Under the pieces are notes generated by a model. It had not been told where the DNA came from. It saw only the letters and a list, made by a program, of their open reading frames with translations, and ran no database searches. Both the position numbers and the translations under genes were made by a program. This document shows, piece after piece, positions 72 to 5,477 of a DNA stretch of 64,000 bases. Every line of letters starts with the position of its first letter. Position 1 is the first letter of the stretch. This stretch comes from Microbispora hainanensis (GTDB lineage: Bacteria > Actinomycetota > Actinomycetes > Streptosporangiales > Streptosporangiaceae): assembly GCF_006874475.1 (NCBI RefSeq), contig NZ_VIRM01000033.1:1-64000 (forward strand). The letters are read 5' to 3'.

Positions 72-986
72 TTATTCCGCAGCTCGTCCTCGTTTTTCGG
101 ACAGCCACCTTTCTGCGAAGGCCACGGCCTTCGGCAGCGAGAAGAGCCTGCTGTCCGCTTTTCCGACCCGGCCCCGCCTGATCTTCTCGGTTCGCTCCAT
201 CTCGGCGCCGCACTCCGCGAAATCACGGTCGTCCAGCACCACGTCCTGGTAATAGGTCCAGGTCCGTCGCCCGTCCACCTGCACCACGCATCCGTACCGC
301 ACCTCCGGCGGGTCGGGCCGGTAGCGGTATTCCGCCAGGTGGAAGGCGCTGCACTTGTCGAAACCGACGCCGAGCAGCAGCACGACCGCCTCCGCCTTCG
401 CGAGCTTGGCCAGCGGCGACCGCTCTCCGAGATGGCACGTGAGATCGTGGCCGGCCATGAGCGACTCCGCGGTCGGTCCGACGGCGGCGAAGGAGGTCTG
501 CGGGTGCTCGCTGCGGACCGCGTTCTCCAGCAGGCGTACGTGCTCCGCAAGGCTGCCGCACTCGATCGCGGAACTCCGCCTCACGTCGAAGGCGGGCATG
601 CTGTCGCGGTACGCCCTGATCTCCTCGTCCGTCATCCCTCGGGTGACCGCGCGGTAGGCGTGGGACGTCTCCGAGTTGCCGGACGTGAAGGTGGGGACGA
701 CGAGCGTGCCCCCGGCGCCGAGAACGCGCATCAAGGCGCCGGCCAGCGTCGCGACTCCTCCGTCGATCGTGCCGATGCTGCGCAGCGAGGCGTGCACCAG
801 CGCGGTCTGGCCGGAGCGCAGCCCCAGCCGGCGCAGGGAGTGGACCAGCGCGTCCTGCCCGAAACCGTGCTTCAGCGGGCCGGGGAGGCGTTCCGGTGAC
901 GCGGGCGGCACAAGGGTCGTCGAGATCGTGGAAAGACGGCTGAGCAGCGAGACGAACGCGAGGGCGGACAGACGGAGGCCCCGCAT
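72..986 (-). CDS. AAC(3)-family N-acetyltransferase of the Fxs cassette
   Basis: A 304-residue protein of the aminoglycoside 3-N-acetyltransferase fold, which moves acetyl groups from acetyl-CoA to amines. Recognisable family blocks are LVHASLRSIG, VPTFTSGNS, HPQTSFAAVG (with the conserved His), SPLAKL and LLLGVGFDKCSAFHLAE. The first ~45 residues are not typical of the family, so the true start may lie further inside. The gene begins 3 nt after the fxsB stop and is the last gene of the minus-strand fxsA-fxsB unit, so co-transcription is very likely. As I recall, AAC(3)-like genes often neighbour fxsB, so the substrate may be the modified peptide and not an antibiotic; that is inference. It should not be read as an aminoglycoside-resistance gene from homology alone. 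Confidence 0.8.
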   Translation of the reverse strand: MRGLRLSALAFVSLLSRLSTISTTLVPPASPERLPGPLKHGFGQDALVHSLRRLGLRSGQTALVHASLRSIGTIDGGVATLAGALMRVLGAGGTLVVPTFTSGNSETSHAYRAVTRGMTDEEIRAYRDSMPAFDVRRSSAIECGSLAEHVRLLENAVRSEHPQTSFAAVGPTAESLMAGHDLTCHLGERSPLAKLAKAEAVVLLLGVGFDKCSAFHLAEYRYRPDPPEVRYGCVVQVDGRRTWTYYQDVVLDDRDFAECGAEMERTEKIRRGRVGKADSRLFSLPKAVAFAERWLSEKRGRAAE

Positions 987-989
987 GTG

Positions 990-3179
990 TCACTCCGGCC
1001 GGGAGCCCGCGGGCTGGGGCAGGCGGGTGACGGCTTCGGTCAGTTTCGCGGCGAACCGGTGTCCCGCCGCCGGGAGCGTGGCGTCGCTGATCCGGCCGAT
1101 CGTCGTCGCCAGCCGCGCGCGTTCCTCCTCACCGAGAAGAGCGGCGACGGAAAGGAGCCCGTACGCGTCGCACAGCAGCCGCTCGTGGTTCGCGTCGCCG
1201 CCGGCGAGGTCGAGCAGGTCGAGCAGCGCCCCGAGCTGGGCCCGGTGGAAATGCTCGACGAGCAGCCGGGCCGTCGTCTCAGGGCCGGCGCCGAGCGGGA
1301 GGGCGATCGCGCCGTACGCTGCGCGGCTCGTCGCGCCCGGCGCAGACGGAGCCAGGGGCGTCAGGACGCGCAGGCCGTCGCGCATGGCGGCCCGCTGATC
1401 GTCGGTCAGGAAGGTGAGAGCGGCAGGGACCACCTCGCCCCATTCGGTGGCCGTCTCGCCGGTGAGCCGGTCCTCGACCGGCAGGCCGTAGCAGTCGCGG
1501 TAGGGATCGACGTCGTCGAGGAGCAGACGGAGCCCGGCGCCGTCGACCAGGCGGACGGGCTCCCAGAGCCCGCTGTCCTCGGCATGCCATCGGCCGCCGA
1601 CCCTCACGGCGAACGACCCGTCGTGCACTTCGACATCGGCGCGGTCTTCTCCGGCTGCGCGCATGCGGCCGAGGGCGGGCAGATGCACGAAGCCATGGAC
1701 GACCGGCACCGTGACCTTCACGGCCAGACCGGTCCGTACGGCGGCGACCGCGGCGACGGCAGCGAGATGACCGGTGTCGGCGGCGGTGAGCGAGGCGGGA
1801 TCGACGGCCGCGCAGCGCGCCGCCCAGGCACGGACGTAGGGGTGGCTCAGCAGGTCGTCGATCGCGGCGCGGTCCGCCCGCTCCGCGTCCACGAGGACGG
1901 ACCAGGACTCCTCGTCGGCGGCGACCGTCGCCGCGCGGCGCGCCGCCAGGCGTGCTCTGCTGAGCTGCGGGGCTCGCAGACGGGCGATATCGTCCGGCGT
2001 GGCGCTTCCCGACGCCATGGCGTCCACGGTGGCGACCGGCAGCCGGTGGACGGCAGCCGCCGGGCGCCGCCGCTCGTGCGCGACCAGGTGGGAGATCAGC
2101 CGGAAGAGGTCCGCGCAGTAGACCGAGGGGTTGGCGAAGCCCGAGCCCGTCCGGTAGCGGTGCGCGTACAGGCCGCCGCCGCAGCTGGTCACGAGCGGGC
2201 AGCGGCGGCATTCCTCGGACAGGGAGTCCAGGCCTCCCTGACGTGCAGCGAAGCCGGGGTGCCGTGCGGCCTCGCTCAGCGAGTGATGGAAGACGTCGAA
2301 TCCGGTCGCGGGCGCGCCGTCGAAGGAGGTTTTGAGCGAATCTGCCTGCTCGTAGGCGCCGTCGGTCTCGAGGACGACGAGGTCGGAGGGCCGCAGGCCG
2401 AGCGACTCGGTCTGGCTGTCCCCGCCCGAGGCGGTCAGGATGATCGAGTCGAACATCCTGATCGGGACCGGCCTGCCGTCCGCGCGCCACCGGTCGTGCA
2501 CGGTGATCAGCCAGTCGGCGTAGGCGGTGTCCCGGCCGGCGGGCCGCAGTGGGGGGTTGTCCCACGTGGCGTGTGGCAGCAGGAAGTCGACGCGTGGAGG
2601 GCGCAGCGCGACGAGCGCCTCGTATACCGCGATGGGATCGTTGCGGACGTCGATGGTGCACAACAGCCCGGCGTAAAGATGCGGATAGTCGTCCCGCAGC
2701 AGGGTGATCGCCCGGATGACCTGCTCGTAACTGCTGCGGCCGTTGGCGTAGAGCCGATGGCGGTCGTTCGCCACGCGGTCGCCGTCGATCGACACGCCGA
2801 CCTTGACGCCCTCGTCCGCGAACATGTCGCAGAACGCCCGTGACAGGAGCACGCCGTTGGTGTGGATCCGCAGGTCGAGGTCGCAGACACCCTCGACCGC
2901 CCGGCGGAGCGTACGTGCGAAACGCCGGAGCCGCTCGATTCCGGCGAGGAGGGGCTCGCCTCCGTGGAAGACGACGTGCGTCGTCCGGATTCGATGCTCG
3001 GCGGCATGCTCTGCGATCCGGTCCGCCGCCCGGACGGCGGTCTCGTCGGACATCACCACCGGCCGTCCCCGCCAGCTGGTGTCGGCGTGTTCGTACACGT
3101 AGCAGTGATCGCAGGCCAGATCACACCTGCTCGCCACTTTGAGCACGAACTGCCGGAACGGCACGATGGGCGGACGCAT
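990..3179 (-). CDS. fxsB: Radical SAM/SPASM protein FxsB with inactivated HExxH-like extension
   Basis: A 729-residue peptide-modifying radical SAM enzyme. The [4Fe-4S]-SAM motif CxxxCxxC is C19, C23 and C26, inside the typical PFRQFVLKV...DLACDHCYVYEHAD start. A SPASM-type cysteine cluster (ECRRCPLVTSCGGG, later NPSVYCADLF) follows at roughly 330-375. The last ~340 residues match the HExxH-type domain found in FxSxx-COOH systems, but where a zinc site HEFQH would be expected the protein reads EHFHR (642-646), so the metallohydrolase motif is lost. The gene is in the same reading frame as fxsA upstream, separated only by the TGA of fxsA and five codons. There is no clear ribosome binding site, which suggests translational coupling. 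The expected role is post-translational modification of the FxsA peptide; the chemistry cannot be read from sequence. Confidence 0.9.
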   Translation of the reverse strand: MRPPIVPFRQFVLKVASRCDLACDHCYVYEHADTSWRGRPVVMSDETAVRAADRIAEHAAEHRIRTTHVVFHGGEPLLAGIERLRRFARTLRRAVEGVCDLDLRIHTNGVLLSRAFCDMFADEGVKVGVSIDGDRVANDRHRLYANGRSSYEQVIRAITLLRDDYPHLYAGLLCTIDVRNDPIAVYEALVALRPPRVDFLLPHATWDNPPLRPAGRDTAYADWLITVHDRWRADGRPVPIRMFDSIILTASGGDSQTESLGLRPSDLVVLETDGAYEQADSLKTSFDGAPATGFDVFHHSLSEAARHPGFAARQGGLDSLSEECRRCPLVTSCGGGLYAHRYRTGSGFANPSVYCADLFRLISHLVAHERRRPAAAVHRLPVATVDAMASGSATPDDIARLRAPQLSRARLAARRAATVAADEESWSVLVDAERADRAAIDDLLSHPYVRAWAARCAAVDPASLTAADTGHLAAVAAVAAVRTGLAVKVTVPVVHGFVHLPALGRMRAAGEDRADVEVHDGSFAVRVGGRWHAEDSGLWEPVRLVDGAGLRLLLDDVDPYRDCYGLPVEDRLTGETATEWGEVVPAALTFLTDDQRAAMRDGLRVLTPLAPSAPGATSRAAYGAIALPLGAGPETTARLLVEHFHRAQLGALLDLLDLAGGDANHERLLCDAYGLLSVAALLGEEERARLATTIGRISDATLPAAGHRFAAKLTEAVTRLPQPAGSRPE

Positions 3180-3194
3180 TACGAGCTGGTTGAA

Positions 3195-3311
3195 TCAGAT
3201 GGACGAATTGAACTCGCCTGACGTCTCCCCGGGCCGATCGTCCGACAGTCCGGACAGCGGAGAAGCGGTGACATCGGCGGCGTGTGTCGCATACGTCGCG
3301 TCGTTGTGCAT
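3195..3311 (-). CDS. fxsA: FxSxx-COOH precursor peptide (FxsA), 38 residues
   Basis: A small gene found by reading the minus strand upstream of fxsB. It starts ATG at 3311, preceded by CAGGTG 5 nt before the codon, and ends TGA at 3195-3197. The peptide starts MHNDATYATHAADV, is rich in Ser, Thr, Asp and Ala, has no Cys or signal peptide, and ends in GEFNSSI. The terminal F-N-S-S-I is exactly the F-x-S-x-x-carboxyl end that defines the FxsA substrate family, and the gene sits directly before a radical SAM enzyme of the matching family. It is shorter than the usual ~50-70 residue members. The Phe and Ser of the tail are the likely modification region. The context makes the call strong although the peptide is too short for most gene finders. 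Confidence 0.88.
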   Translation of the reverse strand: MHNDATYATHAADVTASPLSGLSDDRPGETSGEFNSSI

Positions 3312-3636
3312 AGCGGCACCTGTTTCTGGGCATGAGAGCAATCGATATTTGGACCCCGCTGTGCAGGGGACGCCTGCTTATGTATCCGCAGGTGAACGCG
3401 CCTACGCCCGACGGGGCCTAAAACCGGGAATCTTAACAGGAGAATATTAAGGAAGGGGTTACCTGCGGTATTGGCGCTACTGGAAACTTGCAATACTGGG
3501 CGTTTTATTCCTCGATGTGTCCGATTGTCTGCTAGAACAGGTATCAGCGCATAGTGAGCTTTTCGGGGTCTATGAGGTGATCGCGGGGCGCATCAGGGAA
3601 GCCGGCCGGCGCGTGCAGGCCCTCGGCGGGCGCGGA
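3312..3636. other. Intergenic region between the fxs cassette and the aminotransferase
   Basis: About 325 nt without a gene, more AT-rich than its surroundings and holding divergent promoters. A short palindrome CTTAA-N10-TTAAG lies at 3432-3451. On the minus strand a TAAGAT hexamer (complement of 3430-3435) could be a -10 element for fxsA with a leader of roughly 110 nt. No riboswitch or terminator was recognised. Confidence 0.35.
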
Positions 3637-4896: not shown

Positions 4897-5100
4897 ATGG
4901 CCATGACGCTTCGCCTGACCGACGAGCAGACCGAGGCCCTCCGGCGGCGTGCCGAGAAGGAAGGCCGGAGCATGCAGCAGATCGTCGTTGCCGCGGTGGA
5001 GGAGTACCTCGCCCGGCACACCGCCGATGAGGAGGTACACCGCCTCGGTGTCGAGGCGGTGCGCCGCTGGAAGCCGGTGCTCGACCGCCTCGCCCAGTGA
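4897..5100 (+). CDS. Ribbon-helix-helix antitoxin (CopG/Arc-like)
   Basis: A 67-residue protein starting MAMTLRLTDEQTEALRRRA. A short beta strand (residues 2-7) followed by two helices up to EEYLARH matches the MetJ/Arc/CopG DNA-binding fold of antitoxins. The charged remainder ending in RRWKPVLDRLAQ would neutralise the toxin. The stop overlaps the toxin start by 4 nt (GTGA), the usual coupling in type II toxin-antitoxin operons. Doc toxins are often paired with Phd antitoxins; here the partner is a ribbon-helix-helix protein. A perfect palindrome at 4862-4878 lies in the promoter. ATG 4903 is an alternative start. Confidence 0.82.
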   Translation: MAMTLRLTDEQTEALRRRAEKEGRSMQQIVVAAVEEYLARHTADEEVHRLGVEAVRRWKPVLDRLAQ

Positions 5101-5477
5101 CCCGCTACCTCTCGGTCGAGCAGGTTCTGGATCTGGCCGAACTGGCCGTTGAGGGCACACCCCAGCTCCGAGATTTCGGTCTGCTCGACTCGGCCGTCCA
5201 CCGGCCGCAGGCGAGAATGTTCGACCAGGAGGCATACCCCGATCTTCTGGCAAAGGCCGCTGCGCTGCTGCACGCACTAGCGATCAACCACCCCTTTGTC
5301 GACGGGAACAAGCGGGTGGCCTGGGTCTCCACTGTGGTCTTCCTCGCCTACAACGGCATGGAGGTGGACACGGATGACGACTCGGCCTACGACCTGGTGA
5401 TCGCGGTGGCGTCGGGGAAGCTGACCGAGGTCGACGAGATCGCGGACGTCTTGCGCGGCTTCACCGCCTCATCCTGA
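5097..5477 (+). CDS. doc: Doc/Fic-family toxin
   Basis: A 126-residue Fic-fold protein of Doc size. The catalytic motif is HPFVDGNKR at residues 65-73, with His65, Asp69 and the GNKR anion-binding turn. Fic AMP-transferases have HPFxxGNGR, whereas Doc proteins, which phosphorylate elongation factor Tu, have HxFxDANKR. The Asp and the Lys at 72 place this protein with Doc. The GTG start overlaps the antitoxin stop. Its last 17 nt overlap the 3' end of the convergent TMEM175-like gene. Growth arrest through EF-Tu modification is expected from the family and was not observed. Confidence 0.88.
   Translation: MTRYLSVEQVLDLAELAVEGTPQLRDFGLLDSAVHRPQARMFDQEAYPDLLAKAAALLHALAINHPFVDGNKRVAWVSTVVFLAYNGMEVDTDDDSAYDLVIAVASGKLTEVDEIADVLRGFTASS

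What the first reader, a model, noticed from the sequence alone, without database searches (positions are those of the whole stretch)
3195..3311. Hidden 38-residue FxSxx-COOH precursor gene in front of fxsB
Reading the minus strand before the radical SAM gene reveals a short gene with a good ribosome binding site, ending exactly in F-N-S-S-I at a TGA. This is the substrate that defines FxsA/FxsB systems. It is shorter than family members I recall, so the core may be unusual.
Basis: partly seen in the sequence, partly recalled or inferred. Interest (0 to 1): 0.8.

Follow-up and report, generated by a model that had tools for sequence, protein, structure and literature searches.

The report
Short FxSxx peptide gene, confirmed variant
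A tiny 38-residue gene next to a peptide-crosslinking enzyme is very likely a real precursor of a known kind of ring-bearing bacterial peptide, in a variant where a second modifying domain has lost its active site and the peptide lacks the residues that usually go with it.

Summary
Minus strand 3195-3311 encodes a 38-residue peptide ending FNSSI, 15 nt before fxsB (990-3179). It is hardly chance: 75 of 80 fxsB loci have an FxSxx-ending ORF there (the other five a near variant; 0.0009 expected per locus), and the three closest FxsB relatives have similar 39-40 residue peptides. It is a divergent precursor of the known FxSxx/triceptide kind: TIGR04268 misses it, the leader motif is worn, and the gene evolves at dN/dS about 1 beside a conserved enzyme. 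The core is ordinary. The unusual part lies next to it: the fused hydroxylase domain of this FxsB has lost HExxH (EHFHR), and the peptide lacks the Val-Ala-Ala-like segment before the Phe. Among 153 fused FxsBs that segment stands in 87 of 95 with HExxH and 3 of 58 without, with at least five changes of HExxH state on the tree. I infer that the HExxH domain acts there; this is correlational, and the kinship-corrected test cannot reach 0.05. The cluster very probably continues on another contig with FxsC and an ATPase/FxsT fusion. Most likely FxsB makes one Phe-Ser cyclophane and no hydroxylation follows. Nothing was tested at the bench.

The parts
3195..3311 (-). fxsA-like precursor gene, 38 aa, tail FNSSI-COOH
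   Evidence: translation; similar short peptides in G008, G014, G009; 75 of 80 fxsB loci have an FxSxx ORF here
3195..3212 (-). codons for F-N-S-S-I and stop: presumed core, Phe34-Ser36 cyclophane site
   Evidence: 1 of 18 nt differs from G008 while the rest of the ORF differs at 34 of 99; against G009 4 of 18
3246..3275 (-). worn leader motif DVTASPLSGL (residues 13-22), compare DLRDVPLSLV
   Evidence: PSSM score 5.9, P = 0.01 by shuffling; G009 DYADITLEEL P = 0.004; G008 and G014 not significant. The PSSM rests on 33 of 73 intact precursors that fit a pattern I wrote
3317..3321 (-). Shine-Dalgarno-like AGGTG, 5 nt before the ATG
   Evidence: kept in G008 and G014; one occurrence in window, 0.62 expected
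990..3179 (-). fxsB: radical SAM/SPASM domain (residues about 8-365) fused to a HExxH-type domain without HExxH
   Evidence: TIGR04269 573 bits, cut-off 370; CxxxCxxC at residues 19-26 invariant in 31 sequences; model matches ChlB and SjiH structures
1242..1256 (-). site of the lost HExxH motif (residues 642-646, EHFHR in place of HEFQH)
   Evidence: alignments; position; same residues in G008, G009 and G014
72..986 (-). AAC(3)-fold acetyltransferase, adjacent cluster gene of unknown substrate
   Evidence: Pfam Antibiotic_NAT 252 bits; NCBIfam AAC_3 174 bits, below its cut-off of 270; adjacent downstream in 9 of 12 lost and 30 of 65 intact loci of the 80 (3 too short)

Best explanation
Window 3195-3311 encodes the precursor of a one-ring triceptide-type RiPP. 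FxsB next door most likely joins Phe34 (the F of FNSSI) to the beta carbon of Ser36, giving a three-residue cyclophane two residues from the C-terminus. In this lineage the fused alpha-ketoglutarate HExxH domain has lost its metal-binding motif and is probably kept as a folded, non-catalytic module, and the precursor lacks the Val-Ala-Ala-like segment that most HExxH-bearing systems keep before the Phe, so the product is probably not hydroxylated or cut there. The rest of the cluster (AAC(3)-fold protein, and very probably TIR-like FxsC and a KGGVGR-ATPase/FxsT fusion on another contig) fits the published description of stand-alone FxSxx peptide systems coupled to an AP-ATPase, where the peptide was proposed as a toxin or signal. 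Shown here by sequence: the gene, its conservation, the lost motif. Inferred: translation, the crosslink, the absence of hydroxylation, the join of the two contigs, the biological role.
For: Position and tail: 75 of 80 fxsB loci, control 0.0009, and a near variant in the other 5. Relatives G008 and G014 keep start, Shine-Dalgarno and an FxS tail while the leader diverges. G009 and G014 have no TIGR04268 match at E <= 0.01 (in which 150 of 676 and 150 of 610 first-look candidates were scored), yet the radical SAM domain of FxsB is under purifying selection (dN/dS against the window 0.15-0.17), so the short peptide is the only candidate substrate found there. FxsB scores 573 bits against TIGR04269; C19, C23, C26, C324, C327, C333 invariant and C355 nearly so in 31 sequences. 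MscB, of IPR026335, makes a Phe C4 to Ser C-beta bond (review PMC11002830, passages); that IPR026335 corresponds to TIGR04269 is recalled. Lost HExxH. Segment before Phe: 87 of 95 intact, 3 of 58 lost. Cluster continuation: contig C205 begins with FxsC and the ATPase-FxsT fusion, 89% identical to the region just after the AAC gene in L015. Published kind: PMC7159879, section 24 read.
Against: No expression or mass data. The curated precursor model does not hit. fxsA differs from G008 with dN/dS about 1.06 and codon-position differences 13/13/9, as in unconstrained DNA; only start, frame and tail are kept. G014 ends FNSAIG and G009 FNSTS, so the exact end is loose here. No AAC was found in the 19 kb of G009 or the 18 kb of G008 held, nor FxsT in that of G008, and the FxsC part of C205 has no blastn match in either, so the cluster may be decaying in the genus. 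The characterised enzymes were read about only in passages or by title.
Confidence: 0.78

Rival explanations
1. The window FxsB works mainly in trans on the second, textbook FxSxx precursor of the same genome (contig C187, FQSAI), whose own cluster lacks fxsB; the cis peptide is a decaying remnant.
For: C187 carries a TIGR04268 peptide (43.8 bits), FxsT and an intact HExxH protein but no FxsB; the window FxsB is the only FxsB over cut-off in the genome. G008 has the same gap, while G001 has FxsB there; G003 has FxsB beside HExxH. The cis gene evolves at dN/dS about 1.
Against: G009 and G014 keep a conserved FxsB and gave no TIGR04268 precursor (only part of the candidates scored). The cis tail is kept and the gene sits in the usual place. 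Only two genomes show the gap, and G008 has two fused FxsBs to fill it.
Confidence: 0.15
2. The peptide is used whole, without further processing: loss of HExxH and of the V-A-A segment means no cut next to the ring, and the short precursor itself is the product.
For: Short precursors (38-40 aa) in four Microbispora genomes, lost HExxH in all four, no protease family named among the window cluster genes scanned.
Against: Many HExxH-lost Streptomyces precursors seem longer (their starts were not determined). Whether HExxH domains cut FxSxx precursors at all is unproven, and a protease encoded elsewhere was not looked for.
Confidence: 0.25
3. The ORF is a chance frame and the FNSSI end is coincidence.
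For: No family hit; codon-position pattern like non-coding DNA.
Against: Expected 0.0009 per locus against 75 of 80 observed; similar short ORFs in three relatives, two of them with the same start and Shine-Dalgarno arrangement.
Confidence: 0.02

Closest known systems
FxsA / FxSxx-COOH cyclophane-containing RiPP peptide (TIGR04268)
   Same: C-terminal FxSxx, small ORF directly before fxsB, FxsB-C-T type cluster
   Different: Not detected by the model; 38 aa; worn leader motif; no V-A-A-like segment before the Phe
FxsB family cyclophane-forming radical SAM/SPASM maturase (TIGR04269); MscB
   Same: 573 bits, CxxxCxxC and SPASM-region cysteines conserved, fused C-terminal domain
   Different: Own product unknown; HExxH lost
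FxsBH, inactivated beta-hydroxylase extension form (NF040587)
   Same: C-terminal domain aligns over model positions 22-362 of 364; HExxH replaced
   Different: 144 bits, below the 225-bit cut-off; stands apart from the large HExxH-lost Streptomyces clade on the tree
alphaKG-HExxH enzymes ChlBH and SjiH and radical SAM ChlB (structures 8s5f, 22ob, 9gm3/9gmc)
   Same: Fold match of each domain (9gmc E 3e-28, 22ob E 4e-19, 8s5f E 2e-5)
   Different: SjiH keeps HExxH (alignment) and ChlBH hydroxylates Asp and His (PMC12636437 passage); this one lacks HExxH. That SjiH is also a hydroxylase fused to a cyclophane maturase is recalled
Stand-alone FxSxx peptide-processing systems with AP-ATPase (eLife 2020, PMC7159879, section 24)
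   Same: Peptide, radical SAM, AP-ATPase/TPR with an added MinD/ParA-like domain
   Different: That account has a zincin peptidase cut the peptide; here the HExxH is lost

Membership tests
FxsA, TIGR04268 | score over the 28-bit curated cut-off | tested here: not met
   no hit at E <= 1 for the peptide; not listed at its place in the genome search, which scored 150 of 634 candidates
FxsA, TIGR04268 | ends F-x-S-x-x at the stop codon | tested here: met
   FNSSI*
FxsA, TIGR04268 | encoded beside an FxsB radical SAM gene | tested here: met
   15 nt upstream of fxsB
FxsA, TIGR04268 | leader motif of the type DLRDVPLSLV | tested here: inconclusive
   DVTASPLSGL, P = 0.01 for the window; two relatives not significant; only 33 of 73 intact precursors fitted the pattern used
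FxsB, TIGR04269 | score over 370 bits; CxxxCxxC; SPASM-region cysteines | tested here: met
   572.9 bits; C19, C23, C26, C324, C327, C333 invariant, C355 nearly
FxsBH inactivated form, NF040587 | score over 225 bits | tested here: not met
   144.3 bits
FxsBH inactivated form, NF040587 | HExxH lost in the fused domain | tested here: met
   EHFHR at the site
alphaKG-HExxH peptide beta-hydroxylase, TIGR04267 | HExxH metal ligands | tested here: not met
   no TIGR04267 match on contig C179 at E <= 0.001, motif lost
Triceptides | aromatic-to-C-beta crosslink over three residues | not testable with these tools
   needs mass spectrometry and NMR

The most novel reading that the evidence does not exclude
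In FxSxx systems the HExxH enzyme acts on the small-residue segment directly before the cyclophane (Val-Ala-Ala, or x-Ala-Gly where HExxH is a separate protein), perhaps by alpha-hydroxylating Ala or Gly and so cutting the backbone oxidatively to free the ring-bearing tail, as PflC is reported to do at its ARMD motif. Lineages such as this window that lost HExxH lost the segment too, and make an uncut or otherwise released product. This would reconcile the 2020 peptidase proposal with the newer hydroxylase finding.
Probability: 0.2. Interest if true: 0.72.

Novelty: new variant of a known kind. Interest (0 to 1): 0.45.

Why it matters
The gene adds a member of a known peptide class that the current family model does not see; how the public record annotates it was not checked. 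The wider pattern gives a cheap, direct test of a point I could not find settled in the papers held: what the HExxH domain of FxsBH enzymes does to its peptide. These domains are widespread: 100 of 392 Streptomyces-group genomes searched match NF040587 at E <= 1e-60. Natural neighbours with and without HExxH, such as L075 (VAVAAFQSSV) and L060 (APEGSFQSCL), are ready-made comparisons.

Tried and rejected
Chance ORF: rejected. An inverted repeat CCTGCGG-N5-CCGCAGG upstream of the gene in G008 looked regulatory, but the repeat finder shows none of this kind in the window stretch (one unrelated pair) or in G009 and a different, overlapping palindrome in G014; dropped. PADLOC: FxsB hits viperin models (35 bits, a radical SAM cross-match), the ATPase-FxsT fusion hits PDC-M28B (82 bits), the C187 SIR2-like protein hits ThsA (61 bits), the Doc-like gene hits PDC-S23; no defence assignment was made or tested. 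Plasmid search with the peptide: no match. The AlphaFold model has pTM 0.53, so the placing of the two domains to each other is unsure.

Limits of the motif result. The Fisher values are not corrected for kinship. On the tree only 5 independent pairs lie on starred branches and the sign test cannot reach 0.05: V-[AS] goes the same way in 4.5, never the other way (p 0.0625); Val at -3: 3.8 same, 0.0 other; the full motif: 3.0 same, 0.0 other, 2.0 no difference; Ala at -2: 2.8 same, 0.4 the other way. The tree gives changes of state, not their direction; that they are losses is inferred. The first form [VITA][AS][ARS] fitted 68 of 68 intact and 0 of 14 lost in the set it came from, and 17 of 27 and 3 of 44 outside it; Lys at -1 was added later, giving 19 of 27 and 3 of 44. 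Against the reading: intact systems without the motif are L176, L179, L242, L248, L262, L271, L272, L273; lost ones with it are L206, L215, L217; lost ones with Ala at -2 are L174 (PAP), L177 (SAG), L180 (MAA), L267 and L274 (TAV). Rows dropped: 41 with an identical 250-residue stretch, and five stand-alone FxsBs (L181-L185) shorter than 600 residues (lengths); L209, for which no peptide was found, was left out; tails of six rows were read by a looser pattern. From only the loci returned were used, not all matches; one search was aimed at lost forms, so the ratio of lost to intact is not a frequency.

Literature. The library holds only open-licence papers. Morishita 2024 (Nat Chem) and Ruel 2025 were seen only as references, so the hydroxylation site of FxsBH substrates may already be in print. 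Searches: (listings); none listed a paper whose title or abstract start links the residues before the Phe to HExxH. Passages seen: PMC7159879 (section 24 read), PMC11002830, PMC12636437, PMC12707348.

Full report
What is there. Window 3195-3311 on the minus strand translates to MHNDATYATHAADVTASPLSGLSDDRPGETSGEFNSSI and a stop. Fifteen bases later fxsB begins (ATG at 3179). FxsB (990-3179, 729 aa) scores 572.9 bits against TIGR04269 with a cut-off of 370. An AAC(3)-fold gene follows at 72-986. The window is the start of contig C179 of an 8.7 Mb genome. Two of the three nearest FxsB loci with a named source are Microbispora, and 15 genomes of the genus were searched. G008 and G014 are the same records as L013 (Microbispora siamensis) and L015 (M. 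triticiradicis), judged by contig positions.

Is the gene real? The curated models do not see it: no NCBIfam or Pfam hit at E <= 1; the TIGR04268 search of the whole genome lists another peptide but not this one, though it scored only 150 of 634 candidates. The comparative evidence is nevertheless strong. Of 80 fxsB loci from species genomes (the best 80 of 342), 75 have an ORF of 30 or more residues ending F-x-S-x-x within -250 to +20 of fxsB; the control rate is 9 in 2.68 million strand-bases, or 0.0009 per such interval; the five misses end FNSAIG, FSSSIG, FSSSVG or FQASI at the same place. The three closest relatives of this FxsB have peptides of the same size, taking the ATG as start: G008 MHDDAAIRTHVTGVTASSPSTPPGGRHTRTPGSSFDSSI, G014 MPNESRVQTSVVDSSSQSLEELPDGYRPGVSNLSFNSAIG, G009 (L124) MNDTPTLHTSVADYADITLEELPDRQAIEASTVTFNSTS. 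AGGTG-N5-ATG is common to the window, G008 and G014, not G009.

How it evolves. Between the window and G008 the 18 nt of core plus stop differ at 1 position, the rest of the ORF at 34 of 99, the 60 nt before the ATG at 14 of 59, and fxsB at 12%. Against G009 the tail differs at 4 of 18 and the leader at 52.5%. NG86 gives dN/dS of about 1.06 for fxsA (window against G008), and over three comparisons 0.15-0.17 for the radical SAM domain and 0.40-0.56 for the C-terminal domain. Against G009 the aminotransferase side and fxsB are both about 93.5% identical, while blastn at E 1e-10 finds no match over the promoter and fxsA between them. So the precursor looks like a hypervariable island with a more constant tail. 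That fits the eLife 2020 description of a small, rapidly diverging protein with a more conserved C-terminal peptide (PMC7159879 section 24). The leader DLRDVPLSLV is only faintly kept: DVTASPLSGL in the window scores P = 0.01 by shuffling, G009 P = 0.004, G008 and G014 not significant; the scoring block was built from the 33 of 73 intact precursors that fitted a pattern I wrote.

What FxsB does. The radical SAM domain is nearest in the PDB to ChlB (284 bits; Foldseek E 3e-28). A review states that MscB (IPR026335) forms a Phe C4 to Ser C-beta bond (PMC11002830, passages). I infer the same bond between Phe34 and Ser36 here. The C-terminal domain is modelled with high confidence (blocks of pLDDT 84-96 from residue 381 but for the last; overall pTM 0.53) and matches SjiH (22ob, E 4e-19) and ChlBH (8s5f, E 2e-5), but the HExxH site, residues 642-646, reads EHFHR in place of HEFQH, alike in all four Microbispora enzymes compared. 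It scores 144 bits against NF040587, the inactivated form, under its cut-off of 225. The PW[RK]x[DE]P motif is also mostly absent from lost forms (3 of 54 against 61 of 75 intact). The domain still has dN/dS under 1, so it is probably kept for something.

A wider pattern. In the first 82 fused FxsBs, 68 of 68 with HExxH have [VITA][AS][ARS] before the Phe and 0 of 14 without (residues; tabulated). I then looked at further loci. Over 153 fused FxsBs (41 near-identical ones dropped and L209 left out), the slightly widened motif [VITA][AS][ARSK] stands in 87 of 95 intact and 3 of 58 lost; outside the first set 19 of 27 and 3 of 44; V-[AS] 82 of 95 and 1 of 58. The eight intact exceptions read VAG three times, VAT, VAM, VMS, AVN and GIS; the three lost ones with the motif read TSS, ASS and VSS; and five lost ones keep Ala at -2 (PAP, SAG, MAA, TAV twice). 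On a tree of the radical SAM domain alone the HExxH state changes 8 times, at least 5 by supported branches; in the 5 independent supported pairs the V-[AS] trait goes the same way in 4.5 on average and never the other way (p 0.0625; with 5 pairs 0.05 cannot be reached), the full motif in 3.0 with 2.0 showing no difference, and Ala at -2 in 2.8 with 0.4 the other way. A near pair is L060 (lost, APEGSFQSCL) beside L075 (intact, RVAVAAFQSSV). Of 23 loci looked at for stand-alone HExxH (20 fetched and L122, L125, L126), nine list a candidate peptide. Seven of the eight that also have an HExxH gene show x-A-G before the Phe; three of these seven (L122, L125, L126) are orthologues within the genus. 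The eighth, L291, lists only an ORF on the other strand far from FxsB, which I judge a chance frame. The ninth, L288, in which no HExxH was found, has KGNFNSFI, with GNFNSFI twice in tandem. The other 14 gave no candidate peptide. Three further stand-alone FxsB loci also read I/V-A-G (L182-L184); their HExxH was not checked.

Reading of the pattern. The simplest inference is that the segment before the ring is the target or docking site of the HExxH enzyme. The 2020 account took the zincin-like protein for a peptidase that frees the C-terminal peptide; the ChlB-fused HExxH enzyme is now reported as a hydroxylase of Asp and His, and PflC both hydroxylates Gln and cuts the backbone oxidatively, with Ala and Gly favouring the cut (PMC12636437, passages). 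Ala and Gly are what most FxSxx precursors with HExxH keep next to the ring. An oxidative cut there is possible but unproven; beta-hydroxylation, for instance of the Val, fits as well. I did not read the ChlBH or SjiH papers.

The cluster. Contig C205 begins with FxsC (205 and 158 bits to its two models) and a 1317-residue fusion of a KGGVGR-motif ATPase with FxsT (1053 bits); this stretch is 89% identical to what follows the AAC gene in L015. So the window cluster very probably reads fxsA-fxsB-aac-fxsC-fxsT; the link between contigs is inferred, not assembled. In the 80 loci FxsT lies downstream within 8 kb in 61 of 61 intact and 11 of 12 lost loci with enough sequence, and an AAC gene is adjacent in 30 of 65 and 9 of 12. 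In G009 no AAC was found, FxsB is followed at once by the ATPase-FxsT fusion, and an extra FxsT-like gene stands between fxsA and fxsB. In G008 neither AAC nor FxsT was found in the 18 kb held, and the next gene is DUF418-like (52.6 bits, below its cut-off).

A second system in the same genome. Contig C187 has a textbook FxSxx peptide (FQSAI), FxsT and a stand-alone HExxH enzyme, a SIR2-like protein (named from ThsA hits, and recall), but no FxsB. G008 shows the same gap; G001 has FxsB in place. The window FxsB may serve that peptide in trans. Since G009 and G014 have an FxsB but gave no TIGR04268 match (part of the candidates scored), the cis peptide remains the likelier main substrate.

Verdict. 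The core is ordinary; the interest lies in the lost HExxH of the enzyme and the matching change in the peptide.

Noticed in passing
window 3169-3632: Promoter and fxsA form a hypervariable island between flanks that are about 93.5% identical to G009.
   Followed up: partly
L122 8206-12592 (G000 contig C187): FxSxx cluster with FxsT, SIR2-like protein and intact HExxH enzyme but no FxsB; same gap in G008 (L125).
   Followed up: partly
L288 about 6248 (-): FxSxx-type precursor with a tandem core, GNFNSFI twice, beside a stand-alone FxsB; no HExxH gene found in the 11 kb held.
   Followed up: no
L071, L082, L258, L260, L271: Precursors with Ala or Asn in place of the Ser of FxS (FQASI, FSNFV, FQNSI, FNNSL) before FxsB enzymes with intact HExxH.
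   Followed up: no
window 4897-5477 (+): Ribbon-helix-helix antitoxin-like gene and Doc/Fic-type toxin-like gene near the cluster.
   Followed up: no
L124 6556-8862 (G009): Extra 768-residue FxsT-like ORF between fxsA and fxsB (388 bits to NF040586).
   Followed up: no
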